From contig JAETQH010000029.1 in NCBI GenBank assembly GCA_021770785.1, positions 1-55,561 on the forward strand: DNA of 55,561 bases. The letters run 5' to 3'. A program made the position numbers and the translations under genes. The stretch is from Lachnospiraceae bacterium. GTDB taxonomy: Bacteria > Bacillota > Clostridia > Lachnospirales > Lachnospiraceae. Under the pieces are notes generated by a model that worked only from the letters and a program-made list of their open reading frames with translations, had not been told where the DNA came from and searched no databases. This document shows, piece by piece, positions 4,508-55,253 of this stretch. How positions within the stretch are numbered: the first letter of the stretch is position 1; each line of letters opens with the position of its first letter.

Positions 4508-5920
4508 ATGATAAAATTTGGAACAGGCGGCTGGAGAGCTGTCATCGGAGATGAATTTACAAAAACAAATATTCAGTTATTAGCCCAGGGACTTGTCAAC
4601 AAGATGAAGAGCGAGGGCGTGGCGGAGCAGGGAATTGTCCTTGGATATGACAGAAGATTTCTTTCTAAAGAAGCCATGCAGTGGGCGGCGGAGGTTTTTG
4701 CGGCAGCCCATATCAAAGCCAGCCTGATTAATAAATCTTCACCGACACCGCTGATTATGTTTTATGTAATGAAGCACGACCTGCCCTATGGAATGATGAT
4801 TACCGCCAGCCATAACCCAGCGATATATAACGGTATCAAGGTGTTTACTGCCGGAGGCAGGGACGCAGATGAGCTTCAGACAAAAGACTTAGAGGACTAT
4901 ACCGGGGACATTGCGCTAGAGGAAGTGGCGGTGATGGACTATGAAGAGGGAAAGAAAGCGGGCTATATCGAGGAAATTTATCCTCTCAACGAGTACTTAG
5001 ACAACATTATTGCCTCCGTGAATATGGACGTTATCCGGAATGCCGGCTTAAAGGTGGCGTTAGACCCCATGTACGGCGTCAGTGAGACCTCCTTAAAAAC
5101 TATTCTCATGACGGCACGCTGCGAGGTTGCTACCATTCATGACAGGCACGATACCCTCTTTGGCGGGAAACTGCCGGCGCCTTCTGCGGCAACCTTACAT
5201 TCTCTGCAGAATTATGTGGTGGAGAAAAAATTTGATATCGGTATTGCAACGGACGGGGATGCAGACCGTATTGGCGTCATTGACGATAAAGGAAATTTCC
5301 TGCACCCCAACGATATTCTGGTATTGCTGTATTACTATCTTGTGAAATTTAAGGGATGGAGCGGCCCTGTGGTAAGAAATATCGCTACTACCCATATGCT
5401 GGATAAGGTGGCGTCGGAGTTTGGGGAAACCTGTTACGAGGTTCCGGTAGGCTTTAAATACATTTCTGCAAAAATGCAGGAAACCGGGGCGATTATCGGC
5501 GGGGAATCCTCCGGCGGACTTACGGTACACGGACACATCAACGGAAAAGACGGTATCTATGCGGCGGCGCTTCTGATTGAAATGCTGGCAGTGACCGGAA
5601 AGAAGCTCTCGGAAATCATGGAGGATATCCATACCGAGTGCGGGGAAATCCATATGGAAGAAAGAGATTATAAATTTACGCAGGAAAAGAAAGAGGAAAT
5701 GAACCATATTCTGATGGAGCAGAAGCTTTTGCCGGAGCTGCCGGAGGAAATCGATCATATTTCCTATCTCGACGGCAGCAAGGTATATTTCAAAAACGGA
5801 GGCTGGATTATCGCCCGTTTCTCCGGTACGGAGCCGCTGCTGCGAATCTTTTGTGAGATGCCAGAGGCGGAAACTGCGGCAGAAATCTGTGATATTTATG
5901 AGGAATTTTTAGGCTTATAA
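4508..5920 (+). CDS. Phosphohexomutase (phosphoglucomutase/phosphoacetylglucosamine mutase-like)
   Basis: This 470-aa alpha-D-phosphohexomutase interconverts hexose 1- and 6-phosphates. It shows all four family motifs: the phosphoserine loop TASHNP at residues 98-103, the metal loop TDGDADR near 248, the sugar loop GGESSGGL, and the phosphate-binding RFSGTEPLLRIF near the C-terminus. The start at 4508 follows AGAAAGGGG and opens with the family-typical MIKFGTGGWRA. An earlier in-frame ATG at 4445 would add 21 unrelated residues. Directly behind a chitobiose phosphorylase, its likely job is to turn GlcNAc-1-P into GlcNAc-6-P for NagA. Family members also act on glucose or mannose phosphates, so the substrate is inferred from context. 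Confidence 0.88.
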   Translation: MIKFGTGGWRAVIGDEFTKTNIQLLAQGLVNKMKSEGVAEQGIVLGYDRRFLSKEAMQWAAEVFAAAHIKASLINKSSPTPLIMFYVMKHDLPYGMMITASHNPAIYNGIKVFTAGGRDADELQTKDLEDYTGDIALEEVAVMDYEEGKKAGYIEEIYPLNEYLDNIIASVNMDVIRNAGLKVALDPMYGVSETSLKTILMTARCEVATIHDRHDTLFGGKLPAPSAATLHSLQNYVVEKKFDIGIATDGDADRIGVIDDKGNFLHPNDILVLLYYYLVKFKGWSGPVVRNIATTHMLDKVASEFGETCYEVPVGFKYISAKMQETGAIIGGESSGGLTVHGHINGKDGIYAAALLIEMLAVTGKKLSEIMEDIHTECGEIHMEERDYKFTQEKKEEMNHILMEQKLLPELPEEIDHISYLDGSKVYFKNGGWIIARFSGTEPLLRIFCEMPEAETAAEICDIYEEFLGL

Positions 5921-5934
5921 GGTATAGGCTTTTC

Positions 5935-6006
5935 AAATACCGGGCAGAATGTTATACTTTTTTCAAGGGAAGAGAATGGGAAAAAGTAGCTTCTGCCCGG
6001 TATTTT
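5935..6006 (+). terminator. Long two-part terminator after the mutase
   Basis: Arms AAATACCGGGCAGAA (5935-5949) and TTCTGCCCGGTATTT (5991-6005) pair perfectly over 15 bp and run into TTTT. Inside, ATACTTTTTT and GAAAAAGTA pair again. The stem ends only a few bases before the RBS of the sensor kinase gene, so readthrough would also affect that RBS. Confidence 0.8.
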
Positions 6007-6021
6007 TGCATGGAGGAGTGT

Positions 6022-7872
6022 ATGAAAAAAAATAGAAAGCCAGGCTCGTTAAAACAAAAAATATTGATTTTTCTGATACTGTGCTGGGGCGTCCCAATTG
6101 CAGTATTTTTTGCATTTACCACAATTTCTTACCGGAAAGGGATTATTGAAAAGGCGGAGGGGCTAGTGGAGGACCAGTTAGAAAATGTGGCGGCATTTGC
6201 CTCCATCCGGATTGGCGATGCCATTACCCTCTGCCAGCGCCCCTCCTATGAGAAAACCAGGGAGAACGCATGGAAAAGCTATCAGCAGGGAGAGTACTCC
6301 GAGAGTGAGTATCTCCAGCTGATAAACAGCAGCCTGAAAGGGAAATTTTATCTGGACGAAAAGTTCAATATGTATGCCTATTACCAGTACGGCACGGAGA
6401 ATCCCAAATGTTTTTCCTCCCGGACGGGCATTTCCTATAAGAGCTATACCAGTGAGATACAGCCGGAGCTTTTAGATATTATCCGTATGGATTCCTCCTA
6501 TGCTTATGTGCGGGTTGTGGAGGGCAGGATTTTTATCATAAGGAACCTGTATGCCACCGTGGACTATGAGCGCTATGGGACACTGGTGGTGGAGCTGAAT
6601 AAAGAGAAGGTATTCCAGGACGTGCCTGAGGACACTAGGGAGCGGATGATTGTCTGTATCGACAGTAACCGGGATGTGGTGGAGTTTACCGACGGAGCAA
6701 AGCGGGAGGAAAAGTTAGCGGAGTTGTCGGAGGAACTGTTGGAGATATATGACGGCACAAGCAACCGGAAGCTGGATAAAATGCAGAATGAGGCATATAA
6801 CGGTTATCTCTGGCAGGAACGCCATGACAATTACCACATCGGAGTGCTGGTCTTTGCAAAGAAAAGTGAGATATATTCCAGCCTCTATGAATTTTACACC
6901 ATCGTGGCTTTGATGCTTGCATTGTTTGCGCCGCTGTTTGTTTATGGGGTTTCTTTCCTAAGGAAGCATATCCAGATGCCTATCGGGCAGATATTGCAGG
7001 CATCGAAACGCATGGAAGCGGGAGAAATCGGTATCACGGTGGGAGGAGGGGAGATGCCCAACTCCGAATTTCAGTATTTGAAGGAAAGCTTCGACAGCAT
7101 GTCCGCACAGGTGAAATATCTCTTTGACTATGTGTATGATGAAAAGCTGGCGAGAAAGGATGCGCAGATACAGGCGTTACAGGCGCAGATAAATCCACAT
7201 TTCCTGAATAACACTCTGGAGATGATGAACTGGCAGGCGAGGATGTCGGGAAATACGGTGGTGTCAAAAATGATTGAGGCGCTGGGGACAGTGCTAGACT
7301 ACCGGATGAACCGGGCGGACGTGAAGGAAATTCATCTGGCGGAGGAGTTGCAGTGCGTGGATGCCTACTTTTACATTATGACCATGCGTTTCGGGCAGAG
7401 GCTTCAGATTGAAAAGAAAATTGACGAAGAGCTGCTCTATATTATGGTGCCCCCTCTGATTCTGCAGCCTCTTGTGGAAAATGCTATTGTCCATGGGGTG
7501 GAAACGGTGAAGAACGGAAAAATACGTCTGCGGGTGTACCATGACGTGAAGAATGTTTATTTTGAGGTGCGCAATACCGGGAAAAAGATGACGAAGGAGG
7601 ATTTTGACCGGATTAAGGCAATCCTTGAGGGAGATGAGGAAAAAATACCGAAGAACACGGGACGCCACACCTCCATCGGCATACGGAATGTAAATAAAAG
7701 GATCCGCCTTGTCTATGGGGAAGAATATGGGCTTACGATTGTACAGGAGGAAAATTTAGAGACAGTTTCCACCATTACCATACCTTACAGGGAGTGGAAT
7801 GAGGACGCTTCGTTAAAAGAACGAAAGAGCGCAGAGGATGAATGGAGGAACATGGCAAGATTGAACAAATAA
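6022..7872 (+). CDS. YesM/LytS-type membrane sensor histidine kinase
   Basis: A 616-aa two-component kinase, probably sensing extracellular sugar through its large loop. One membrane helix lies at about residues 15-35 and a second near 290-312, with an extracellular sensing region between them. A HAMP-like segment follows. The cytoplasmic kinase core has the His_kinase family motif QAQINPHFLNNTLEMMNW with the phospho-acceptor His, the N-box PLVENAIVHGVE, and a G-box SIGIRNVNKRIRL. The start at 6022 has GGAGGAG just upstream; an ATG at 6010 overlaps that RBS. The partner is almost certainly the YesN-like regulator at 11429-12193, with the ABC transporter genes between them. Confidence 0.9.
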   Translation: MKKNRKPGSLKQKILIFLILCWGVPIAVFFAFTTISYRKGIIEKAEGLVEDQLENVAAFASIRIGDAITLCQRPSYEKTRENAWKSYQQGEYSESEYLQLINSSLKGKFYLDEKFNMYAYYQYGTENPKCFSSRTGISYKSYTSEIQPELLDIIRMDSSYAYVRVVEGRIFIIRNLYATVDYERYGTLVVELNKEKVFQDVPEDTRERMIVCIDSNRDVVEFTDGAKREEKLAELSEELLEIYDGTSNRKLDKMQNEAYNGYLWQERHDNYHIGVLVFAKKSEIYSSLYEFYTIVALMLALFAPLFVYGVSFLRKHIQMPIGQILQASKRMEAGEIGITVGGGEMPNSEFQYLKESFDSMSAQVKYLFDYVYDEKLARKDAQIQALQAQINPHFLNNTLEMMNWQARMSGNTVVSKMIEALGTVLDYRMNRADVKEIHLAEELQCVDAYFYIMTMRFGQRLQIEKKIDEELLYIMVPPLILQPLVENAIVHGVETVKNGKIRLRVYHDVKNVYFEVRNTGKKMTKEDFDRIKAILEGDEEKIPKNTGRHTSIGIRNVNKRIRLVYGEEYGLTIVQEENLETVSTITIPYREWNEDASLKERKSAEDEWRNMARLNK

Positions 7873-7968
7873 TGTCAAGTCGGTCTAATGCCTTTTTGTA
7901 AAATCTGTACTAATATGATGATAGTAAATGAAGAACACATTTACAAATCATATGAAGGAGGATTTACT

Positions 7969-9309
7969 ATGAAGAAAAAAGTTTTATCAGTACTGTTAGT
8001 GGGGGCAATGACAGCATCTATGCTGGCTGGTTGTGGAAACAACGCCGGGCAGGCAAATGCCAATGCTTCATCGGGAAATGGCGGGGAGGTATCCCAGGGG
8101 ACAGAAAAAGGCAGTGATACCGCTGAGGCAGCTAAAAACCCGGTTACATTAAAAACCGTGTCTATGTTTGGGGGAACAGATCCGAATAAAGAAACCTATG
8201 AGTCTATCAACGCAGACATTATGGCACAGTATGATTACATTACCATCGAGGACAATTCATCTACCTCAAGCGAAGAGTGGAAAGCAACTGTCAATGCAGA
8301 CTTTTCTGTGGGAAACGAACCGGACGTGATCCAGTTCTTTACCGACGCAACTGCAGATACCATTGTGGACACCGGAAAATTAGTATCCATTGAAGAGATA
8401 CGGGCAGAATATCCGGAGTATGCACAGGATACCTTAGAGTCTGCTTTAGACGCAGCAAAGAATACCGACGGTGTTATGAGGGCAGTGCCCACCACCGGAT
8501 ACTGGGAGGGCTTATACTGCAACAAGGATTTGTTTGACCAGTATGATTTAGAGCTTCCTACGGATTGGGAGTCCTTAGAGACAGCAATCACAACCTTCCA
8601 TGATAACGGAATTATCCCGATTGCATGTTCCCTGAACAATGTACCTCATTACTGGATTGAGTTTTTAATGCTCTATTCGGCAGGTGTGGAGGAATATACT
8701 TCTATCCCTGAAACTGCTCCGGAAGGCTGGGTAAAAGGTCTTGAGCTGTTTAAAACCTTAAGGGACATGGGTGCATTCCCGGAGGACACCGACACAGTAG
8801 ACGACCCCTATGTGGGACAGTTATTCCGTGACAAAAAAGCTGCAATGCAGCTAGACGGCTCCTGGTATGCAGGAAATATTGAAGATACAGAAAACACCGT
8901 TGTAATTGCATTTCCGGGCGTTCCGGACCAAAAGGCAGAGGCAGGCGCTTTAGTAGGCGGTATCTCTTCCGGCTTCTACATTACAAAGAAAGCATGGGAG
9001 GACCCGGACAAGAAAGACGCAGCAGTGAAATTTGTTATGGCGCACACCAGCCAGGCAGGCGTGCAGAAATACTGGGAGGCAACAGGCGCTTTATCCCAGG
9101 CGGCAACCGAGGTATCTCCGGTAGAGGGAGCAACACCTTTTGCAGAGTCCATCGCAGCTTATACCAGCAGTGCCAGCGCCATTGTATCACCGACTGACTC
9201 CAGAATCGGTGACGCATATAAGACCTTAGTGGCATATATTGTGAAAGTATCTACAGGCGCTATGTCTGCAGAAGAGGCATTGAATGAGACATTATCTCTA
9301 ATTCAGTAA
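7969..9309 (+). CDS. Sugar ABC transporter substrate-binding lipoprotein
   Basis: The 446-aa protein captures a sugar outside the cell and delivers it to the two permeases downstream. It begins with a lipoprotein signal ending in LAGC, giving a lipidated Cys at about residue 24, then a Ser/Gly/Asn-rich linker. The body is a family 1 extracellular solute-binding fold, with the typical GLYCNKDLFDQYDLELPTDW-like segment where the ligand lobe closes. The start at 7969 has a strong AAGGAGG; an earlier in-frame ATG at 7888 lacks one and would destroy the signal peptide. Chitobiose or chito-oligosaccharide is the ligand suggested by the neighbours. No ATPase gene accompanies this importer, so it probably borrows a shared MsmX-type ATPase. 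Confidence 0.9.
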   Translation: MKKKVLSVLLVGAMTASMLAGCGNNAGQANANASSGNGGEVSQGTEKGSDTAEAAKNPVTLKTVSMFGGTDPNKETYESINADIMAQYDYITIEDNSSTSSEEWKATVNADFSVGNEPDVIQFFTDATADTIVDTGKLVSIEEIRAEYPEYAQDTLESALDAAKNTDGVMRAVPTTGYWEGLYCNKDLFDQYDLELPTDWESLETAITTFHDNGIIPIACSLNNVPHYWIEFLMLYSAGVEEYTSIPETAPEGWVKGLELFKTLRDMGAFPEDTDTVDDPYVGQLFRDKKAAMQLDGSWYAGNIEDTENTVVIAFPGVPDQKAEAGALVGGISSGFYITKKAWEDPDKKDAAVKFVMAHTSQAGVQKYWEATGALSQAATEVSPVEGATPFAESIAAYTSSASAIVSPTDSRIGDAYKTLVAYIVKVSTGAMSAEEALNETLSLIQ

Positions 9310-9318
9310 AGTTTGTGA

Positions 9319-9453
9319 AAAACGGAGGGGCTGGTTTTGCCCGGTTCCTTCGTTTTGACCTTATGAGAATTGCGTCGTCAGACGCATTTATTCGGAAGTT
9401 GTGGTAACTTTAGTTACCTGCAACTTTGAGAGCGTCACGAAGTGACGATTTTT
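9319..9453 (+). terminator. Four tandem hairpins between binding-protein and permease genes
   Basis: In 135 nt there are four consecutive stem-loops: 9319-9356 (imperfect, GGAGGGGCTGG with CCCGGTTCCTTC), 9371-9386 (TGCGTC/GACGCA), 9397-9426 (AAGTTGTGGTAACT with AGTTACCTGCAACTT), and 9433-9447 (CGTCAC/GTGACG) followed by six T. The last is a weak terminator; the others look like mRNA 3'-end protectors. Such an array would let the binding protein be made in excess of the permeases. Confidence 0.65.
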
Positions 9454-9521
9454 TGTACCCAAAATCCGGGAATTTCCCGTGGAAAAAGAAGGTTTTTTAA
9501 GAGAAGAAAGGTGGAAGAAAG

Positions 9522-10490
9522 ATGTTATATAAGAAAAAATGGCCGTTAGTGGTGTTCTTAGTACCGGGGTTACTGTTTATGCTAGTCTTTCTTTACATAC
9601 CGTTTATTGAAAATATTAAGAACAGTTTTTATGATATGCCTGCCATCGTAAAGATGCCGGGGACTGAATGGAAGTTTATTGGACTTGAAAATTACAAGAG
9701 ATTGCTTACGGATACAGATGTGAGGACGGCGTTACTTAACTCCGTAAAGATGATGGTGCTGACGGTTATTTTTGAGGTGGGAATCGCCTTTGTCTTAGCC
9801 GTACTGGTATCCCAGGTGAAAAAACTTCAGCAGCTGTTTCGTACCGTCTACTTTTTTCCGGTAGTTATTTCTGCAACAGCAATCGGTTTGTTGTTTAAAT
9901 TGTTCTATAACTATAATGGCGGTATGTTGAATCAGATATTAGAAGTATTTGGAGTGGAGCCTGTCAACTGGCTTTCACCGGAACTTGCATTTATCATGGT
10001 ATGTATTCCTACACTGTGGAGTTACATCGGATTTTACTTCGTAATTCTGCTGACAGGATTAAGCGATATCCCTGATGATATATATGAGGCGGCATCTATT
10101 GACGGCTGCAACCGTTTTAAACAGGTATTTTATATTACGCTGCCGATGATGAAATCCGTATTTTTTACTTCTGTTACCTTAGCGGTAACGGGAGCGCTGA
10201 AGGTATTCGACCTTCCGTGGGTGATGGTTCCCAACGGAGCGCCTCAGGGAATGACTCATTTCCTCGGCACATACATGTACCAGCAGACCTTCGGCCTTAA
10301 CAATTATGATTATGGTTCTACCTTAGCGGTATTGATTGTTGTTTTAGGTATCGTAGTTTCCAAAGGTGTAGGCTTTTTGACTGAGGATAAAGAGGAAAGG
10401 GCAGAGAAAAAGGCGAAACGTGTCAGAGAAAAAGCAGAGAAGAAAGCTGCTTTAAGCGGCAAAAAAGTACAGAAAAGGGAGGTGGCATAA
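9522..10490 (+). CDS. Sugar ABC transporter permease (MalF/UgpA type)
   Basis: A 322-aa integral membrane subunit with about six helices, starting with a helix at residues 8-28. It carries the cytoplasmic EAA loop EAASIDGCNRFKQVFYITLP that docks the ATPase. The last 35 residues are a strongly basic and acidic tail (KEERAEKKAKRVREKAEKK), longer than usual for the family. The stop codon touches the start of the next gene, so the two permeases are translationally coupled. It pairs with the next gene to form the channel for the sugar bound by the upstream lipoprotein. Confidence 0.93.
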   Translation: MLYKKKWPLVVFLVPGLLFMLVFLYIPFIENIKNSFYDMPAIVKMPGTEWKFIGLENYKRLLTDTDVRTALLNSVKMMVLTVIFEVGIAFVLAVLVSQVKKLQQLFRTVYFFPVVISATAIGLLFKLFYNYNGGMLNQILEVFGVEPVNWLSPELAFIMVCIPTLWSYIGFYFVILLTGLSDIPDDIYEAASIDGCNRFKQVFYITLPMMKSVFFTSVTLAVTGALKVFDLPWVMVPNGAPQGMTHFLGTYMYQQTFGLNNYDYGSTLAVLIVVLGIVVSKGVGFLTEDKEERAEKKAKRVREKAEKKAALSGKKVQKREVA

Positions 10491-47506: not shown

Positions 47507-47523
47507 TAGAAATGAGGATGATT

Positions 47524-49518
47524 ATGGACGTATCAAAGAAATATGGAAGAGCTTATTTTATGCCCCCGGAGGTGACCTACGACTGGGTGCAGAAGGATAT
47601 GATTGAGAAACCGCCTATCTGGTGCAGTGTAGATTTAAGGGACGGAAATCAGGCGTTGATTGAGCCCATGGGATTAGAGGAAAAGATTGAATTTTTCCGG
47701 ATGTTAGTGGATATCGGGTTTAAGGAAATCGAAGTGGGATTTCCGGCGGCTTCTGATACGGAATACCGTTTTATGAGGGCGTTGATTGAGCGGAATATGA
47801 TACCGGAGGATGTGACGGTTCAGGTGCTGACCCAGGCGAGGGAGCATATCATCAAAAAGACCTTTGAGGCGGTGAAGGGTGCGCCCCATGCGGTGATTCA
47901 TCTTTACAATTCCACCTCCGTTGCCCAGAGGGAGCAGGTGTTTAAAAAGAGCAAGGAAGAGGTAAAACAGCTGGCGGTCGACGGGGCGGTTTTATTAAAA
48001 GAGCTGGCGGAAGAGACAGACGGCAATTTTACCTTTGAATACAGCCCGGAGAGCTTTCCGGGGACGGAAGTAGATTATGCGGTGGAAGTCTGCAACGCAG
48101 TGCTGGACGTGTGGCAGCCGGATGCAGAGCACAAGGCGATTATCAATATTCCAACTACGGTACAGATTGCTATGCCCCATGTGTTTGCGTGCCAGATTGA
48201 ATATATACATAAGCATTTGAAATACAGGGATAATGTAGTGCTCAGTGTTCACCCCCACAACGACAGAGGTTGTGGAATCAGTGATGCAGAGTTCGGCGTC
48301 TTAGCAGGTGCGGACCGTATCGAAGGAACTTTATTCGGAAACGGAGAGCGTACCGGAAATGTGGATATTGTAACGGTGGCGATGAATATGGTCTGTCATG
48401 GCGTCGATTCGGGACTGGATTTTTCCGATATTGCCTCTATCCGCGAAAAATACGAGCGTTTTACGGGAATGCACGTTTATGAGAGAACTCCTTACGCCGG
48501 AGATTTGGTCTTTACAGCTTTTTCCGGTTCCCATCAGGATGCGATTTCCAAGGGAATGGCGTGGCGTGAGGCAGGAAAGAGCGGCGAGCGCTGGGATGTG
48601 CCATACCTTCCGATTGACCCGAAGGATGTGGGCAGGGAATATGAGTCCGACGTTATCCGAATCAACAGCCAGTCCGGTAAGGGCGGTGTGGCGTTCATTT
48701 TAAAACAGAATTATGGTATCTCACTGCCGGATAAGATGAAAGAGGAAGTGGGATATTTGATCAAGGGTGTTTCGGACGAGAAACATCAGGAACTTTCACC
48801 GGAGGCAATTTATCAGATATTTTCCGAGCATTATGTCAATGTCAAGGACGTATTTTCCGTTCCGGAATGCCATTTTGAGCAGAAGGACGGTATCTGCGCC
48901 ACAGTGACTATTGAACAGGGGGCGGAGAAACGGACGATTAAGACCAACGGAAACGGTCGTCTGGATGCGGTCAGCAATGCCATTAAGATGTATTTTGGTA
49001 TTAGCTATGAACTGGCGGTTTATGAGGAACATGCGATTTCCGAGGGTTCTTCCTCCAAAGCGGCGGCTTATGTGGAAATTATCTGTCAGGGCAAACCTTA
49101 CTGGGGTGTGGGCGTGGATGAGGACATCATTAAGAGCTCCATTGCCGCACTGGTTTCTGCCGCAAACAAAATGACAAAAAGTAAGAACATTACCGAGGGA
49201 ATGGAAGAGCGCACGGTGGAAATCATGAATTATATCCAGAACCACTATGCGGATGTGACCTTAGATGTGTTGGCGGACACGTTTAATCTGTCAAAACCGT
49301 ATTTGTCTAAATATATTAAGGAAAAGTCCGGTATGACGTTTCAGGATGCGGTAAAAAAAGCCCGGATGAAAAAGGCGAGAAGATTGCTGAAGGAAACTAA
49401 TCAGACCGTGGAGTCTATTGCGGCTTCGGTAGGTTATGAAAACGTGGAGCATTTTAACCGTCTGTTTAAGAAGGCTTATGATATGACGCCGGTTCAGTTC
49501 CGGAGACAGTACAAGTAA
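47524..49518 (+). CDS. leuA: 2-isopropylmalate synthase fused to an AraC-type DNA-binding domain
   Basis: A 664-aa protein. Residues 25-400 are the LeuA TIM barrel ([17 protein letters not shown] at about 34; metal site HPHNDRGCG near 242; [19 protein letters not shown]). Residues 435-555 are the LeuA regulatory dimer domain that binds leucine in relatives. Residues 565-664 are a complete AraC double [23 protein letters not shown] and [20 protein letters not shown], ending [10 protein letters not shown]. The frame is continuous; LeuA of this long type normally stops near 560. The start at 47524 follows GAGG. It probably makes 2-isopropylmalate and also binds DNA in a leucine-dependent way; that second role is inference. 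No other leu genes are nearby. Confidence 0.93.
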
Positions 49519-49576: not shown

Positions 49577-49945
49577 TTATTCCGAAATTTTAACATTGGA
49601 TTTAATCGCCTGAAAACTCTCCGGGCTGATGACATGTTCAATCCGGCAGGCATCTTCCGCGGCAATAGCTGCATCCACTCCAAGGCTGGTGAGCCAGCTG
49701 GTCAGAAATTCGTGCCGTTCATAAATCATTTCCGCAATGGCGCGTCCTGATTCGGTGAGATAAATGTATCCCTCTTTTGTGACAGTAATGTTTTCTTTTT
49801 CACGCAGATTTTTCATGGCAACGCTGACGCTGGATTTCTTGAAGCCAAGCTCTTCGGCGATGTCGACGGAACGTACCACTGGATTTTTTTTGCTTAAAAT
49901 CAGTATGGTTTCTAAGTAATTTTCTGCTGATTCATTTACGTTCAT
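49577..49945 (-). CDS. DtxR/MntR-family metal-dependent regulator
   Basis: A 122-aa regulator comprising the winged helix and dimerisation domains but no SH3-like third domain, as in MntR. It begins with NESAENYLETILILS and has the recognition stretch VRSVDIAEELGFKKSSVSVA. The metal-binding region is ERHEFLTSWL...EDACRIEHVIS, which keeps the E-H and C/E-H ligands. It likely senses Mn or Fe. It is transcribed toward the LeuA fusion gene and away from the HTH-TPR regulator. Confidence 0.9.
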   Translation of the reverse strand: MNVNESAENYLETILILSKKNPVVRSVDIAEELGFKKSSVSVAMKNLREKENITVTKEGYIYLTESGRAIAEMIYERHEFLTSWLTSLGVDAAIAAEDACRIEHVISPESFQAIKSNVKISE

Positions 49946-50114: not shown

Positions 50115-51920
50115 ATGAAATATATCGGAAAAATGATAGGTTCCCTGCGGTGTGAAAAGGAAATATCACAGAAAGACCTTGCACGGGGAGTGATAAGTAC
50201 GGCGGAATTGTCAAGAATAGAAAATGGTACGAAGGAGGCAAACAGCCTTATTTTAGAAGTATTGCTGCAGCGATTGGGAAAGTCTTTAGACAGATTGGAA
50301 TATATTGCGTCGAATGAGGAATATCAGGAAATATGTTTAAAAGAGATGATTTGTCAGGAGTTGGCATGTGAAGATTACGAGATGGCTGAAATGCTATTGA
50401 CGGAATATGAAGCATATGGAGCCGAAAATAATGTACTCTGTCGGCAATTTGTGATGCAGATAAGAGCTGTTATCGCATTTGTAAGGGAGAGAAATATCGG
50501 ACAGTGCTGCCAACGGTTACAGGAGGCGCTGAAGCTTACTCAAGCAAGCTGGAAAAAGGAAATGTGGACGGGAGAGAAGCTATGCACACAAGAAATTCAG
50601 ATTTTGCTTACCCTGTATTATCTGCGTCTCCTTGAACAGACAATTAATGAGGAAGAAATCGTAAGATTAGCAGAATATATTGACAGCCATTATACAGAAG
50701 AAAAGGAAAAGGTGAAGGTGTTTCCGCAGGCTGTTTATCTTGCAGGCAGAGCAGCTTTTGCAGAGGGGAATTTCGGAAAAGCCTATAAATTGTATCAGGC
50801 GGGAAAACAATGCCTGATGGAAAATGGGGTTTTAGATTTAATGAGTAAAATTTTAGAGGGCGAAAAAGAATGTTTAGAGAAAACGGAACGGTGGGAAGAG
50901 GCGGCAAAAAGAGAAAAAACACTTACTGCGATTGATTTCTTATATGAACAGGCGCAGAAGAAAAAGACAGAAGAGGAGATACTGTTTTTTGTCTTAAAAA
51001 GCTACCAAAAAGATGTCGTTATCAGTAATGAACTGCTTCGAGAGCTTCGTGAGGAAAAGGGAGTGTCACAGGAGGAAATCAGTGAGGGAGTGTGTGCCCA
51101 AGAAACCTTATGCAGGATAGAAACACAGAAAAGAGCTCCGAAGCACAGGACAGTGAGGGGAATTTTTGAAAAATTAGATTATGACAGGCGTTTTTTCCAA
51201 GGCTATGTGGTGTCAGATGATTATTATGCTTATGAGTTGGTGGGGAAAATCAATAAAAACTGGTATAAGAAAAATAAGGAGGAAGCTTATCGGCTTGTGG
51301 AAGAACTTAAACAGATTCTGGATTTAAGTATTCCGGTGAACCGTCAGTACATTGGGCATGAAGAATTGCAGAGAAAAATAGAAGAGGAGAAACTGAATTG
51401 GGAAGAAATAGCTGATACATCAATACGATTGCTTCGCTATACGATGAAGGATTTTTCGGGACAGGTGTACCGGGAACTTTCTATTGAGGAGTTCGTGATT
51501 ATAAATTATATGGCATTATGCTTAAAAAAGGCAGGTAGGATGAAAGAAGCGGAGAACTTATATCAGCAGGTGCAGGAGGTTTATAAAAAAAGCATTTTGA
51601 AGGAAAAGAATCGCATGGGTTCGCAATTTCTGTATTATATCAATTATGTAGGATTGCTAGAAGAGGAGGATAAACTATCAGAAGCGATTGCAATAGGAAA
51701 GCAGGGGCTGAATTTTGCGTTGGATTGTCAGAGGGGGGACATTGCGGCAACAGTTTTGGCAAATATGGCATGTGCCTATGAAAAAATGTCAGAGAAAAAA
51801 GAGTTAGCAAAAGAATGTCTGCGGAATGATTATTATTTAATGCTCTTATATGAACATGAGAAAGACGCAGATAAGATAAAAAAATACTATGAAAGCAGAT
51901 ATGGTGTGGATATTGTATAG
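50115..51920 (+). CDS. Regulator with two XRE HTH domains and a TPR-like body (peptide-sensing type)
   Basis: A 601-aa cytoplasmic protein. HTH 1 is at residues 6-60 (ISQKDLARGVISTAELSRIE). Residues 65-295 are all-helical with alternating aromatic/Ala positions like tetratricopeptide repeats. A second HTH follows at about 303-355 (VSQEEISEGVCAQETLCRIE), then more TPR-like helices to the end (AENLYQQVQEVYKKS; ATVLANMACAYEKMSEKKE). One HTH plus TPR is the RRNPP/Rgg/PlcR peptide-receptor layout; two HTH halves in one chain are unusual. Its cognate signal is probably the 41-aa peptide encoded convergently at its stop codon. Target sites are probably the inverted repeat at 52099-52156. Confidence 0.82.
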   Translation: MKYIGKMIGSLRCEKEISQKDLARGVISTAELSRIENGTKEANSLILEVLLQRLGKSLDRLEYIASNEEYQEICLKEMICQELACEDYEMAEMLLTEYEAYGAENNVLCRQFVMQIRAVIAFVRERNIGQCCQRLQEALKLTQASWKKEMWTGEKLCTQEIQILLTLYYLRLLEQTINEEEIVRLAEYIDSHYTEEKEKVKVFPQAVYLAGRAAFAEGNFGKAYKLYQAGKQCLMENGVLDLMSKILEGEKECLEKTERWEEAAKREKTLTAIDFLYEQAQKKKTEEEILFFVLKSYQKDVVISNELLRELREEKGVSQEEISEGVCAQETLCRIETQKRAPKHRTVRGIFEKLDYDRRFFQGYVVSDDYYAYELVGKINKNWYKKNKEEAYRLVEELKQILDLSIPVNRQYIGHEELQRKIEEEKLNWEEIADTSIRLLRYTMKDFSGQVYRELSIEEFVIINYMALCLKKAGRMKEAENLYQQVQEVYKKSILKEKNRMGSQFLYYINYVGLLEEEDKLSEAIAIGKQGLNFALDCQRGDIAATVLANMACAYEKMSEKKELAKECLRNDYYLMLLYEHEKDADKIKKYYESRYGVDIV

Positions 51921-52046
51921 CTAATTTGTGTGGGCTTCATCAAAAAACGAAAGCGGTTGAATGAAACTTTCGGAATTTATTGCAGGCAGAGCAATCAACC
52001 CCATACAAATAAGCGATAAAACAAGTGATAGTAATTTTTCCTTCAT
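51921..52046 (-). CDS. Pheromone-like small secreted peptide, 41 aa
   Basis: A short gene found by reading the minus strand. ATG at 52046, AGGAGG at 52063-52058, stop at 51921-51923, directly abutting the stop codon of the HTH-TPR regulator on the other strand. The peptide starts MKEKLLSLVLSLICMGLIAL, a typical signal sequence, and ends QPLSFFDEAHTN after a likely cleavage region PAINSES. This is the layout of Phr/NprX/PapR-type signalling peptides: a short exported precursor beside a TPR-type receptor. Its promoter (TATACT near 52079-52074 on the minus strand) faces the 22-bp inverted repeat. No homology can be claimed; the call rests on architecture. Confidence 0.7.
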   Translation of the reverse strand: MKEKLLSLVLSLICMGLIALPAINSESFIQPLSFFDEAHTN

Positions 52047-52098
52047 AAGTAAATTATCCTCCTAAAGTTTTTTTAGTATAGTACATTTTAAAGAGATT

Positions 52099-52156
52099 GT
52101 TTATGACGTTTTACGAAAACATTTAATACAAAAAGTTTTCGTAAAACGTCATAAAC
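52099..52156. promoter_or_regulatory. Perfect 22-bp inverted repeat, likely operator of the peptide locus
   Basis: The 22-bp arms 52099-52120 and 52135-52156 are exact reverse complements, separated by 14 bp. Each arm contains its own dyad, GTTTT-ACG-AAAAC and GTTTT-CGT-AAAAC, with centres 27 bp apart. The element lies between the pheromone gene (leftward) and the RiPP precursor (rightward). Two dyads in mirror orientation suit binding by a regulator with two HTH domains. A hairpin terminator is less likely: the arms stand before both genes, and only five T follow on the right side. Confidence 0.75.
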
Positions 52157-52227
52157 TTTTTCGAGTGAATATGTTAATGTTTTAATTAAGCAATTGCTAA
52201 AGATTGATTACAGAGGAGGTGAAAAAT

Positions 52228-52299
52228 ATGAGAGTATTAAAAGATGAGATAAAGCGTGTAAGATGTATTTTTGATAACTGTGGATGCCGTCCAAAGTAA
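52228..52299 (+). CDS. RiPP precursor peptide, 23 aa, three Cys
   Basis: A 23-residue gene with a strong RBS GAGGAGGTG seven bases before its ATG. The N-terminal 11 residues are charged (MRVLKDEIKRV) and would be the leader. The C-terminal part RCIFDNCGCRPK holds Cys13, Cys18 and Cys20, the likely substrate of the radical SAM enzyme 75 bp downstream. No GG cleavage site is present, in line with an exporter that lacks a C39 peptidase. Thioether or C-C crosslinks are both possible. Very short Cys-containing precursors beside SPASM enzymes are known, but I cannot assign this to a named family. Confidence 0.78.
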   Translation: MRVLKDEIKRVRCIFDNCGCRPK

Positions 52300-52309
52300 T
52301 GTGTGGTTA

Positions 52310-52345
52310 AATGGCTTAGAGGTATTTAAATGCCTTTAAGCCATT
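52310..52345 (+). terminator. Attenuator-like hairpin between precursor and maturase genes
   Basis: AATGGCTTA (52310-52318) pairs with TAAGCCATT (52337-52345), and inner AGGTATTT pairs with AAATGCCT around a tiny loop. There is no strong T-run, so it would act as a partial terminator or 3' stabiliser and raise precursor mRNA over enzyme mRNA, as is common in RiPP operons. Confidence 0.6.
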
Positions 52346-52374
52346 ATTAAAGTTAATGGTGTGGAGAAAAAATA

Positions 52375-53622
52375 ATGTACAAAATATCAAAAAGTGTTAT
52401 TATAAAAAAAGGATATGAAGTAGTTAATTTGAAAAACAGGTTATTAGATGGTGAAGTGGAAATTACAGAACCATATATACAGGAATTGGAGAAAATAATA
52501 GAAACGGGCACAGAAACGATTCAAAGCGATTTGGAGAAGTTTTTGTTTGAACATAAATATTTAGTAGAAGATAGAATTGCAGAATCGGAGATACAACAGC
52601 TGCTAGTGATGATGAAAGAAACACTCATTATAGGGATTTTGCCTACAATGAGTTGTAATTTTAGATGTACATATTGCTATGAATGTCATACGTCAGAGCA
52701 TATGACAGAAATGACGTTGGAAAATATAAAATATTTTCTGAAACGAGAAATTACCACTAAGAATATTCGGTATGTTCAAGTGAACTGGTTTGGTGGAGAA
52801 CCAACATTATGTGTAGAGCAGATTTGCGATTTTAATAGGTATGTGATTTCTTTACAGGAACAGTATAAGTTTTCTTTTATATCGGGAATTACGACAAACG
52901 GATATTTATTAGATAAAGAAATGTTTGCAAAATTTTATCGATTGGGAATAGAAAATTATCAAATTACGTTAGATGGTTGGCAACATGATACATTTAGAAA
53001 GCATGTGACAGGTAAGAAAACACGTGATAAAATTGTAAATAATTTGAAAGAAATATCATCTTTGCCGGAAGAATATGAATTTGTTGTTCGTTTGAGGTAC
53101 AACATTTCGGAGAATAATCAAGACATGTCTTGGTATGATTATATAAAAGAAGTTTTTGGTGCAGACAATCGTTTCACAATGTATATTAATTTTGTGAAGG
53201 ATTGGGGTGGAGAAAGTGCGAAAAATATGGAATTATGCACCAATCAGGAAATGAATGATTTAGAAGAAAAACATGTTTCTTATATGGAAAAAATAGGGTT
53301 AAGAAATGATAATACAAGAGAAGAAATTTTAATTCCACTTAAAAATGTCTGCTATACGGCATACCCTAATTCATACACATTTACACCGGATAATAGAGTG
53401 ATAAAATGCACGGTTGCTTTGGATGATTCAGAAAATCAGATTGGAAGAGTAGATGATGTGCTAGGTGTTATAGTGGATAAAGAAAAGGAAGAAAAATGGA
53501 CAGAAACAACGTTAGAATATTGTGGGGATTGCGAATATATACTTAGTTGCTTACACAGGGCTTGCCCAAGGCAGGTTGTAATAGACCATCAGCCAGTGGA
53601 GAGATGTGTTCTGCACCATTAG
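52375..53622 (+). CDS. Radical SAM/SPASM peptide maturase
   Basis: A 415-aa enzyme. Residues 1-85 form a small helical/winged N-terminal part that may bind the precursor. The radical SAM cluster motif is CNFRCTYC (Cys94, Cys98, Cys101), followed by FGGEPTL for SAM binding. From about residue 322 a SPASM domain supplies Cys residues for auxiliary clusters (CYTAYPNSY, IKCTVALDD, CGDCEYILSC, CPRQ, ERCVLHH). Such enzymes install thioether or carbon crosslinks in small peptides; the substrate is presumably the 23-aa peptide just upstream. AT-rich. Confidence 0.9.
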   Translation: MYKISKSVIIKKGYEVVNLKNRLLDGEVEITEPYIQELEKIIETGTETIQSDLEKFLFEHKYLVEDRIAESEIQQLLVMMKETLIIGILPTMSCNFRCTYCYECHTSEHMTEMTLENIKYFLKREITTKNIRYVQVNWFGGEPTLCVEQICDFNRYVISLQEQYKFSFISGITTNGYLLDKEMFAKFYRLGIENYQITLDGWQHDTFRKHVTGKKTRDKIVNNLKEISSLPEEYEFVVRLRYNISENNQDMSWYDYIKEVFGADNRFTMYINFVKDWGGESAKNMELCTNQEMNDLEEKHVSYMEKIGLRNDNTREEILIPLKNVCYTAYPNSYTFTPDNRVIKCTVALDDSENQIGRVDDVLGVIVDKEKEEKWTETTLEYCGDCEYILSCLHRACPRQVVIDHQPVERCVLHH

Positions 53623-53639
53623 AGAGCGAGGGAGAAAAT

Positions 53640-55253
53640 TTGAAAAAATATATTTATATGCGTTGGAAAGAGTGCTTCACAGCCAGCTTATTTTTATGCC
53701 TGAATGTTTTGGCTGCCACGATATGTTCTTTTGTGCTGATGGATACCATAGATGCCATTACGGCAGGAGATAAACAGCAAATCTGGAAACTGTTGCTGGG
53801 TCAGGCGTTTGTCTGGATAATGACAGTTATAACCTACTATCTGGGGGGAGTATGGAAGGGGAAAGCGCAAAGAGCCATAAATAATGATATGCGCCATACG
53901 ATTAGCAACATACTTATGCGAAAAAGTTATCAGCAGTATGAGGAGCATGCTATAGGAGATTATATCTCGTGGTACACAAATGATGTGGCGCAGATTGAAA
54001 TGTGGGCGCTGAATTCCTTCTTTTCGCTGGTGACTTGTATTTTTCAAGTGGTGATTACAGCGGTATCATTGTTTTTAATCCATTGGGCGTTGGTAATTGC
54101 AGCTTTGCTGGGCGGAGTATTTTTGATGGTTATTTCTGTGTTTTTCGAGAAAAGAATTGAGGAAAAAGCGAATGCAACCTCAGAGGCATCGGAAACCTTT
54201 TACAGCGGAATGAAGAACCTGCTGTCCGGCTTTATGGTGATGAAAAATTTCCATATTATGAACAAATTTGAAAAGCAGGCAGATGAATGCAGTGAGAAAA
54301 AATCTGAAACCGATTATCAATATATAAAAGTACAGGTTACATCAAATGCATGGCTGCTTTTTTGTGATGCAGCCTTTCGCGTATTGATTATTGGTATTTG
54401 TGCCTTTCTTATATTTGATGGAAAACTTGGAGTCAGTGCCATCGTCGGTGTGATTAATTTTATGCCGAAAATTTTTGATGGTTTAACAGATGCGGTTTGC
54501 TATAAGAATTCCATGATAGCAGCAAAACCATTTTTTGAGAAATTTGAAAATGAGTACCGGAAAACAGAAAAAGAAGGAAAAAATTTAAAAACATTGGGAG
54601 ATATCAGGCAAAGGATTTGTATGAAACATTTAGGGTACTGCTATGGGGAGAAAGTAGTATTAAAGGATTTGAATTTCCAGATTCAGAAAGGGAAAAAATA
54701 TGCACTGGTGGGTTCAAGCGGCAGTGGAAAAACAACACTTATGAAAATTTTGTTAGGGCAGCTGCAGGGGTATGAGGGAGAACTTCTTTATGATAATGTG
54801 TCTGCATCAGAGTATGAACCGGAGACGATTACAGATAAAATTGCTTATATTGAGCAAAATGTATATCTGTTTGATACGACAATTCGCAATAACATTACAT
54901 TGTGGGAAGATTTTTCAGAAGAAAAGATAGAAAAGGCGCTGCAGGAAAGCGCATTGTTTGAGGATATGAAATTATTTCCACAGGGCTTAGATACGCCGGT
55001 GGGAGAAAACGGCAAAAACTTGTCCGGCGGACAGCGGCAGAGGATTGCGGTGGCGAGGGCATTGATACATGATAAAAAGCTTCTTTTTGTAGATGAGGGA
55101 ACATCAGCATTAGATCAGCAGAATGCAAAAGAAATCGAAACGAAACTTTTAGAGAATGAGGATTTAACATTATTATTAATCAGCCATCATCTTGATGGAG
55201 TGAGAAAAGCACAGTTTGACGATGTATTTGAATTAAAAACGGTGGAAGAATGA
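53640..55253 (+). CDS. ABC exporter of the RiPP locus (membrane plus ATPase domains)
   Basis: A 537-aa half-transporter. Six helices in residues 15-310 are followed by an ATPase domain: Walker A GSSGSGKTT (about 359), signature LSGGQRQRIAVAR, Walker B LLFVDEGTSALD, and H-loop ISHHLDG. There is no N-terminal C39 peptidase, so leader removal must happen elsewhere. I chose the TTG at 53640, which follows GAGGGAG. An ATG at 53547 would overlap the maturase by 76 bp and add 31 unrelated residues. It ends the operon and would export the modified peptide. Confidence 0.88.
   Translation: MKKYIYMRWKECFTASLFLCLNVLAATICSFVLMDTIDAITAGDKQQIWKLLLGQAFVWIMTVITYYLGGVWKGKAQRAINNDMRHTISNILMRKSYQQYEEHAIGDYISWYTNDVAQIEMWALNSFFSLVTCIFQVVITAVSLFLIHWALVIAALLGGVFLMVISVFFEKRIEEKANATSEASETFYSGMKNLLSGFMVMKNFHIMNKFEKQADECSEKKSETDYQYIKVQVTSNAWLLFCDAAFRVLIIGICAFLIFDGKLGVSAIVGVINFMPKIFDGLTDAVCYKNSMIAAKPFFEKFENEYRKTEKEGKNLKTLGDIRQRICMKHLGYCYGEKVVLKDLNFQIQKGKKYALVGSSGSGKTTLMKILLGQLQGYEGELLYDNVSASEYEPETITDKIAYIEQNVYLFDTTIRNNITLWEDFSEEKIEKALQESALFEDMKLFPQGLDTPVGENGKNLSGGQRQRIAVARALIHDKKLLFVDEGTSALDQQNAKEIETKLLENEDLTLLLISHHLDGVRKAQFDDVFELKTVEE

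What the first reader, a model, noticed from the sequence alone, without database searches (positions are those of the whole stretch)
50115..55253. Self-contained peptide-signalling RiPP locus: double-HTH TPR receptor, convergent pheromone-like gene, operator, 23-aa Cys-rich precursor, rSAM/SPASM enzyme, exporter
Seen: all six parts lie in 5.2 kb with consistent orientation. Known: RRNPP/Rgg receptors sense short exported peptides, and several control radical-SAM RiPP clusters in streptococci. Inference: here the signal is the 41-aa peptide, the receptor acts on the 22-bp inverted repeat, and the product is a crosslinked peptide from RCIFDNCGCRPK. The combination of receptor layout, very short precursor and convergent signal gene does not match a named system that I know.
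Basis: partly seen in the sequence, partly recalled or inferred. Interest (0 to 1): 0.93.

Follow-up and report, generated by a model that had tools for sequence, protein, structure and literature searches.

The report
Tandem peptide-signal receptor running RiPP operon
A stretch of bacterial DNA holds a doubled gene for a likely peptide receptor, a small facing gene for a likely secreted peptide, a long DNA palindrome and an operon predicted to make and export a modified peptide; receptor, small gene and palindrome recur together beside different genes in other bacteria, so this is likely an undescribed cell-to-cell signalling switch.

Summary
All six parts are present. The 601-aa receptor is two homologous PlcR/Rgg-like HTH-TPR units in one chain (halves align at E 2.5e-25) and belongs to a family found in 21 of 329 genomes of its bacterial family. 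Of 40 testable receptors, 27 are abutted by a convergent small gene with a signal-peptide-like start, against 3 of 310 control genes. A long inverted repeat lies next to it; in 23 loci aligned on its ATGxC half-site a TATAAT-like -10 sits exactly 22 nt outside on the peptide side in 17, and 21-22 nt outside on the cargo side in 13. Two receptors of another family repeat the pattern. Cargo varies: rSAM plus ABC exporter, ThiF plus M16, EAL proteins. I read a tandem RRNPP-like quorum-sensing switch predicted to activate its peptide gene and a RiPP operon. Against: the 41-aa peptide has no sequence homologue, 13 of 40 receptors fail the peptide test, the repeat could also terminate transcription, and nothing was tested at the bench. 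Peptide-controlled rSAM RiPPs and convergent signal genes are known in streptococci; tandem receptor and shared operator are new in my searches.

The parts
50115..51920 (+). Tandem receptor, 601 aa: two HTH-TPR units in one chain
   Evidence: HTH domains near residues 10-61 and 307-357; PlcR match 311-585 and match of 3-105 to transcriptional regulators that I recall as Rgg; halves homologous; model pLDDT 91.8; PlcR best in Foldseek and VIA-align
51921..52046 (-). Convergent 41-aa gene, likely secreted pheromone precursor
   Evidence: SD 6 nt, Lys-rich then hydrophobic N-terminus, stop against receptor stop; same gene place in 27 of 40 receptors; no sequence homologue
52075..52103 (-). Predicted promoter of the peptide gene: -35 TAAACA 52103-52098, -10 TATACT 52080-52075
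   Evidence: Consensus scan, by itself not above shuffles; -10 lies at the offset 22 shared by 17 of 23 loci
52099..52156 (.). Inverted repeat, likely operator; arms 52099-52124 and 52131-52156, outer 22 bp perfect
   Evidence: followed by TTTTT on the + side, so a terminator role is not excluded
52228..52299 (+). 23-aa predicted RiPP precursor, three Cys near the C-terminus
   Evidence: SD 6 nt; Cys-bearing short ORFs in L032, L033, L034 at the same place
52375..53622 (+). Radical SAM/SPASM-type maturase, 415 aa, with an N-terminal domain before the rSAM core
53640..55253 (+). ABC exporter with fused membrane and ATPase domains; TTG start chosen by me
   Evidence: PF00005 and PF00664

Best explanation
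The locus carries a receptor made of two fused PlcR/Rgg-like units, a convergent small gene for a likely secreted pheromone, and an inverted repeat, the likely operator, between that gene and an operon predicted to make, crosslink and export a 23-aa Cys-rich peptide. The pheromone is predicted to be trimmed outside the cell, re-imported and bound in the TPR groove of the receptor. The loaded receptor would bind the inverted repeat, whose outer edges touch the -35 regions of two divergent promoters, and activate both: the peptide gene (positive feedback) and the cargo operon. The rSAM enzyme would then link the precursor's cysteines, most likely as thioethers, and the ABC transporter would export the product. 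Shown here: the anatomy, the receptor duplication, the recurrence of receptor, peptide gene and repeat, the half-site motif and its fixed distance to -10 elements. Inferred: secretion, import, binding, sign of control, crosslinking.
For: Convergent peptide gene behind 27 of 40 testable receptors against 3 of 310 controls and behind 2 of 2 receptors of another family found later. Repeat next to the peptide gene beats all 40 shuffles in 27 of 29 loci; half-site pair in 14 of 39 receptors against 0 of 343 controls; gapped operator pattern at only 2 places in the 5-Mb genome, both beside tandem receptors. -10 at offset 22 in 17 of 23 loci on the peptide side and at 21-22 in 13 of 23 on the cargo side, highest single count in 500 shuffles 5. 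Receptor profile and fold like PlcR, internal duplication, two-gene form in three loci. An SBP_bac_5 peptide-binding protein is encoded in the genome. rSAM fold like thioether-forming maturases; short Cys-bearing ORFs before related rSAMs.
Against: 13 of 40 receptors lack the peptide gene by the strict test; relaxing recovers L069 and, without a Shine-Dalgarno match, L071. No homologue of the 41-aa peptide. Repeats of score 14 or more also follow 20 of 343 control genes, and the window repeat is followed by TTTTT, so it may terminate transcription. The window's cargo side has no -10 of 5 of 6 at offset 21-22. L010 has no recognisable precursor and a shortened rSAM. L033 and L034 have single-unit receptors and no convergent peptide gene. 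Nothing was measured.
Confidence: 0.72

Rival explanations
1. Same parts, opposite sign: the tandem receptor represses both promoters by covering their -35 regions and the peptide releases it.
For: The operator edge would overlap the -35 on both sides, which fits occlusion as well as activation. Peptide-released repressors of this superfamily (PrgX) are recalled, not looked up.
Against: The exact spacing of 22 nt to the -10 is more than a repressor needs; best matches are PlcR and Rgg-like proteins, recalled mainly as activators.
Confidence: 0.22
2. The inverted repeat is a terminator of the receptor transcript, not an operator, and the module is less tightly coupled than I say.
For: Perfect 22-bp stem, RNA fold z-score -10.2, TTTTT after it on the + side, T-rich edges in several loci; 20 of 343 control genes also have repeats of score 14 or more within 430 nt.
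Against: Letters of the half-site are conserved across loci, the repeat lies between two predicted promoters at a fixed distance, and 0 of 307 control regions 160-420 nt after a gene reach score 16 while 20 of 29 peptide loci do. The terminator scan found none but allows loops of 3-8 nt only, so it does not settle this. Both roles may hold.
Confidence: 0.1
3. The convergent peptide is a membrane-acting small protein (toxin-like or immunity-like) kept beside its regulator, not a pheromone.
For: Hydrophobic N-terminal stretch and small size; no homologue.
Against: Polar, variable tails after the hydrophobic stretch in 30-odd loci look like propeptides; the neighbour is a TPR receptor of the PlcR type.
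Confidence: 0.08
4. The modified 23-aa product itself is the signal read by the receptor, and the 41-aa gene is accessory.
For: Short, with a dedicated exporter.
Against: The convergent gene recurs with cargo that has no rSAM or such precursor.
Confidence: 0.05

Closest known systems
PlcR-PapR (RRNPP family)
   Different: Two units in one 601-aa chain; peptide gene convergent; repeat placed between two divergent promoters
Group III Rgg/SHP of streptococci
   Same: Signal gene convergent with and overlapping the end of the receptor gene (PMC13361665, passages)
   Different: Single-unit receptors of streptococci; here tandem receptor, peptides of 34-77 aa and a shared long operator
Rgg/SHP-controlled RaS-RiPP clusters of streptococci
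   Same: Peptide-sensing regulator beside an rSAM RiPP operon (PMC13361665, PMC8092268, search listing)
   Different: Other receptor architecture, other rSAM type (no NCBIfam cut-off reached), other bacteria
Thioether-forming rSAM maturase of entries 5wgg/5why (CteB, name recalled)
   Different: ChlB (20.7), anSMEcpe (20.4) and TigE (20.3) tie within 1 Z, so the chemistry is not fixed by this

Membership tests
RRNPP quorum-sensing system | HTH DNA-binding domain | tested here: met
   Two HTH domains over Pfam cut-offs
RRNPP quorum-sensing system | Peptide-binding TPR fold | tested here: met
RRNPP quorum-sensing system | Receptor of 250-500 aa (criterion in PMC10075063, passages) | tested here: not met
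   601 aa; each half is about 300 aa, and two-gene forms of about 310 aa each exist. I therefore call it RRNPP-like, not a standard member
RRNPP quorum-sensing system | Adjacent 10-100 aa propeptide with a secretion signal | tested here: met
   By a simple basic-plus-hydrophobic rule, not SignalP: 41 aa, adjacent
RRNPP quorum-sensing system | Mature peptide imported and bound by the receptor | not testable with these tools
   Only an SBP_bac_5 protein in the genome was shown
Group III Rgg/SHP | Convergent overlapping short hydrophobic peptide gene beside an Rgg | tested here: inconclusive
   Convergent and abutting; receptor is not a single Rgg unit
TIGR04463 rSAM_vs_C_rich maturase | Score over the curated cut-off | tested here: not met
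   138.9 of 525 bits
rSAM RiPP cluster | rSAM enzyme, short precursor ORF and exporter in one operon | tested here: met
rSAM RiPP cluster | Modified peptide product | not testable with these tools
   Needs mass spectrometry

The most novel reading that the evidence does not exclude
A widespread, undescribed class of quorum-sensing switch: a single-chain pseudo-dimer RRNPP-like receptor that reads a convergent secreted peptide and, from one long palindromic operator locked at the -35 of two divergent promoters, fires both the pheromone gene and an exchangeable cargo operon, often a RiPP factory. Its 600-aa length hides it from published 250-500 aa screens.
Probability: 0.6. Interest if true: 0.87.

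Novelty: new variant of a known kind. Interest (0 to 1): 0.77.

Why it matters
It makes testable whether two fused receptor units replace the usual receptor dimer, and it suggests synthetic tail peptides as switches for silent RiPP operons.

Tried and rejected
The DNA of the closest rSAM relatives (P0002-P0006, 57-72% identity) could not be fetched, so conservation of the 41-aa and 23-aa frames at close range is untested. Two genome-contig scans found no relative. Viral contigs, plasmids and phages gave only distant rSAMs (best 38.5% identity, L035, which has a receptor-like ORF and an N-terminally short rSAM; not counted). rSAM type elsewhere: own genus 1 of 62 genomes, itself; family 3 of 397; order 4 of 392; class 1 of 391, itself; family of G641 1 of 38 and genus of G683 1 of 79, each the query genome. 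L009 (G090), the weakest hit, shows no receptor in the ORF list of its 4 kb and was not followed. Receptor outside the family: 3 of 300 order genomes, two of them of the own family. Pfam was run on 40 of the 69 downstream ORFs; 17 of the 40 had no match at 1e-6. Dropped before counts: 2 of 42 receptors in the peptide test, 3 of 42 in the repeat test; the -10 test used only 23 loci with ATGxC in the repeat. The three shuffle tests shuffled single letters. The operator pattern does not match the diverged repeat of the third own receptor (C246). In the literature searches PMC10626739 and PMC13239113 were listed and not opened.

Full report
1. What is in the window. The receptor ORF has 601 aa and two HTH domains. 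A 41-aa ORF on the other strand (51921-52046) ends against the receptor stop. An inverted repeat with arms 52099-52124 and 52131-52156 follows, then a 23-aa ORF with three Cys, a radical SAM protein and an ABC exporter. The window is a whole contig, so the downstream side is cut.

3. The receptor belongs to a family with a fixed neighbourhood. 21 of 329 genomes of the same bacterial family have it, with 40 matches, three of them in the own genome. I read all 40 (window, L010 and 38 fetched regions); two further receptor-like ORFs in these regions make 42. The rule for a peptide gene was: ATG, GTG or TTG start, at least 4 nt of Shine-Dalgarno, a basic residue and then a hydrophobic stretch near the N-terminus, opposite strand. 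I wrote it after seeing the window, L008 and L032, and set the limit of 60 nt between the two stops after the first listing. By it, 27 of 40 testable receptors have such a gene, against 3 of 310 other genes in the same regions. Thirteen fail; relaxing the rule recovers L069 and, without a Shine-Dalgarno match, L071. Two receptors of another bacterial family, found afterwards, both have the gene, 2 and 7 nt from the receptor stop, and a long repeat.

4. The operator. In 29 loci with a peptide gene (27 of the fetched or own receptors, the window, and L032, which was found through its rSAM) the repeat beside the peptide gene beats all 40 shuffles in 27 (not L069, L087), and 20 of 29 score 16 or more. 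Of control regions 160-420 nt after other genes, 0 of 307 reach 16. Within the first 430 nt, where terminators lie, 25 of 39 receptors and 20 of 343 controls reach 14; the half-site pair ATGACnTTT...AAAnGTCAT is present in 14 of 39 receptors and 0 of 343 controls, and a gapped form of it at only two places in the genome, both beside tandem receptors, with 0 for the reversed pattern. In 23 loci aligned on the outer edge of ATGxC, a TATAAT-like hexamer (5 of 6) starts exactly 22 nt outside in 17 on the peptide side; on the cargo side 8 start at 22 and 5 at 21; the highest count at any one position in 500 shuffles was 5 on either side. With a 17-nt spacer the -35 touches the operator edge on both sides. 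The window obeys this on the peptide side (TATACT) but has no such hexamer on the cargo side. I read the fixed phase as a sign of an activator; a repressor is the main rival. The repeat would also form a strong RNA stem (z -10.2), is followed by TTTTT, and may end the receptor transcript as well.

5. The cargo varies. Pfam on 40 of 69 downstream ORFs and my rSAM profile show rSAM enzymes at seven receptor loci besides the window (L010, L074, L080, L082, L083, L086 as a 113-aa piece, L096); five of these (not L083, L096) have the convergent peptide gene by the test. Others: ThiF-like plus M16 peptidase (L066), ABC exporters with membrane domain (L010, L075, L080, L082, L084, L089), ABC ATPase (L069, L081), FtsX-like permease (L094), EAL proteins (L068, L103), MFS (L073, and behind the second receptor of L010), and neighbours that look like housekeeping genes (L070, L079). 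Seventeen of the 40 had no match.

7. Known or new. Peptide-controlled rSAM RiPPs of streptococci: PMC8092268, PMC13361665, PMC12445099 (search listing). Convergent overlapping signal genes are group III Rgg/SHP (PMC13361665, passages). RRNPP_detector takes receptors of 250-500 aa, and its families with RRNPP-linked gene clusters do not include Lachnospiraceae (PMC10075063, passages). PMC12700828 and PMC9765709, passages only, gave nothing on fused receptors. RRNPP with Lachnospiraceae gave 0 papers; searches listed none on a tandem receptor by title and start of abstract. The library lacks most subscription journals and preprints. That the family is Lachnospiraceae is my inference.

8. What stays open. 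No binding, secretion, sign of control or product was measured. The 41-aa peptide has no sequence homologue among 5.8 billion proteins, by a search that needs shared 5-residue words. That fits a fast-changing pheromone but is also what a spurious ORF would show; its place and type across the family are what speaks for it.

Noticed in passing
window 47512-49518 (+): One ORF of 668 aa fuses a complete 2-isopropylmalate synthase (HMGL-like, IPMS_D2, LeuA_dimer) to a C-terminal AraC-type HTH: an enzyme that may sense leucine and bind DNA.
   Followed up: partly
window 49577-49945 (-): DtxR/MntR-type metal-dependent repressor directly upstream of the receptor gene.
   Followed up: no
L066 (G183:C92), 5269-9919: Receptor, convergent peptide and repeat beside a 30-aa ORF, a ThiF-like and an M16 peptidase gene: a RiPP-like locus without rSAM.
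   Followed up: partly
convergent peptides of L070, L073, L074, L080, L081, L087, L092, L093, L103: Predicted tails share a single Cys after a small or branched residue (such as ISIC, VSTC, TVC) followed by an acidic stretch; the window peptide lacks this.
   Followed up: no
L110 and L111 (G661): In another bacterial family the inner half-site TGGAA is kept while the outer half-site is AGTATAT instead of CATGAC; the two HTHs may read different sub-sites.
   Followed up: no
L068 and L103: The first cargo gene is an EAL-domain protein, so the same module may steer cyclic di-GMP.
   Followed up: no
G000:C20 (L076) and G000:C246 (L081): The same genome has two more tandem receptors, each with its own convergent peptide and repeat.
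   Followed up: partly
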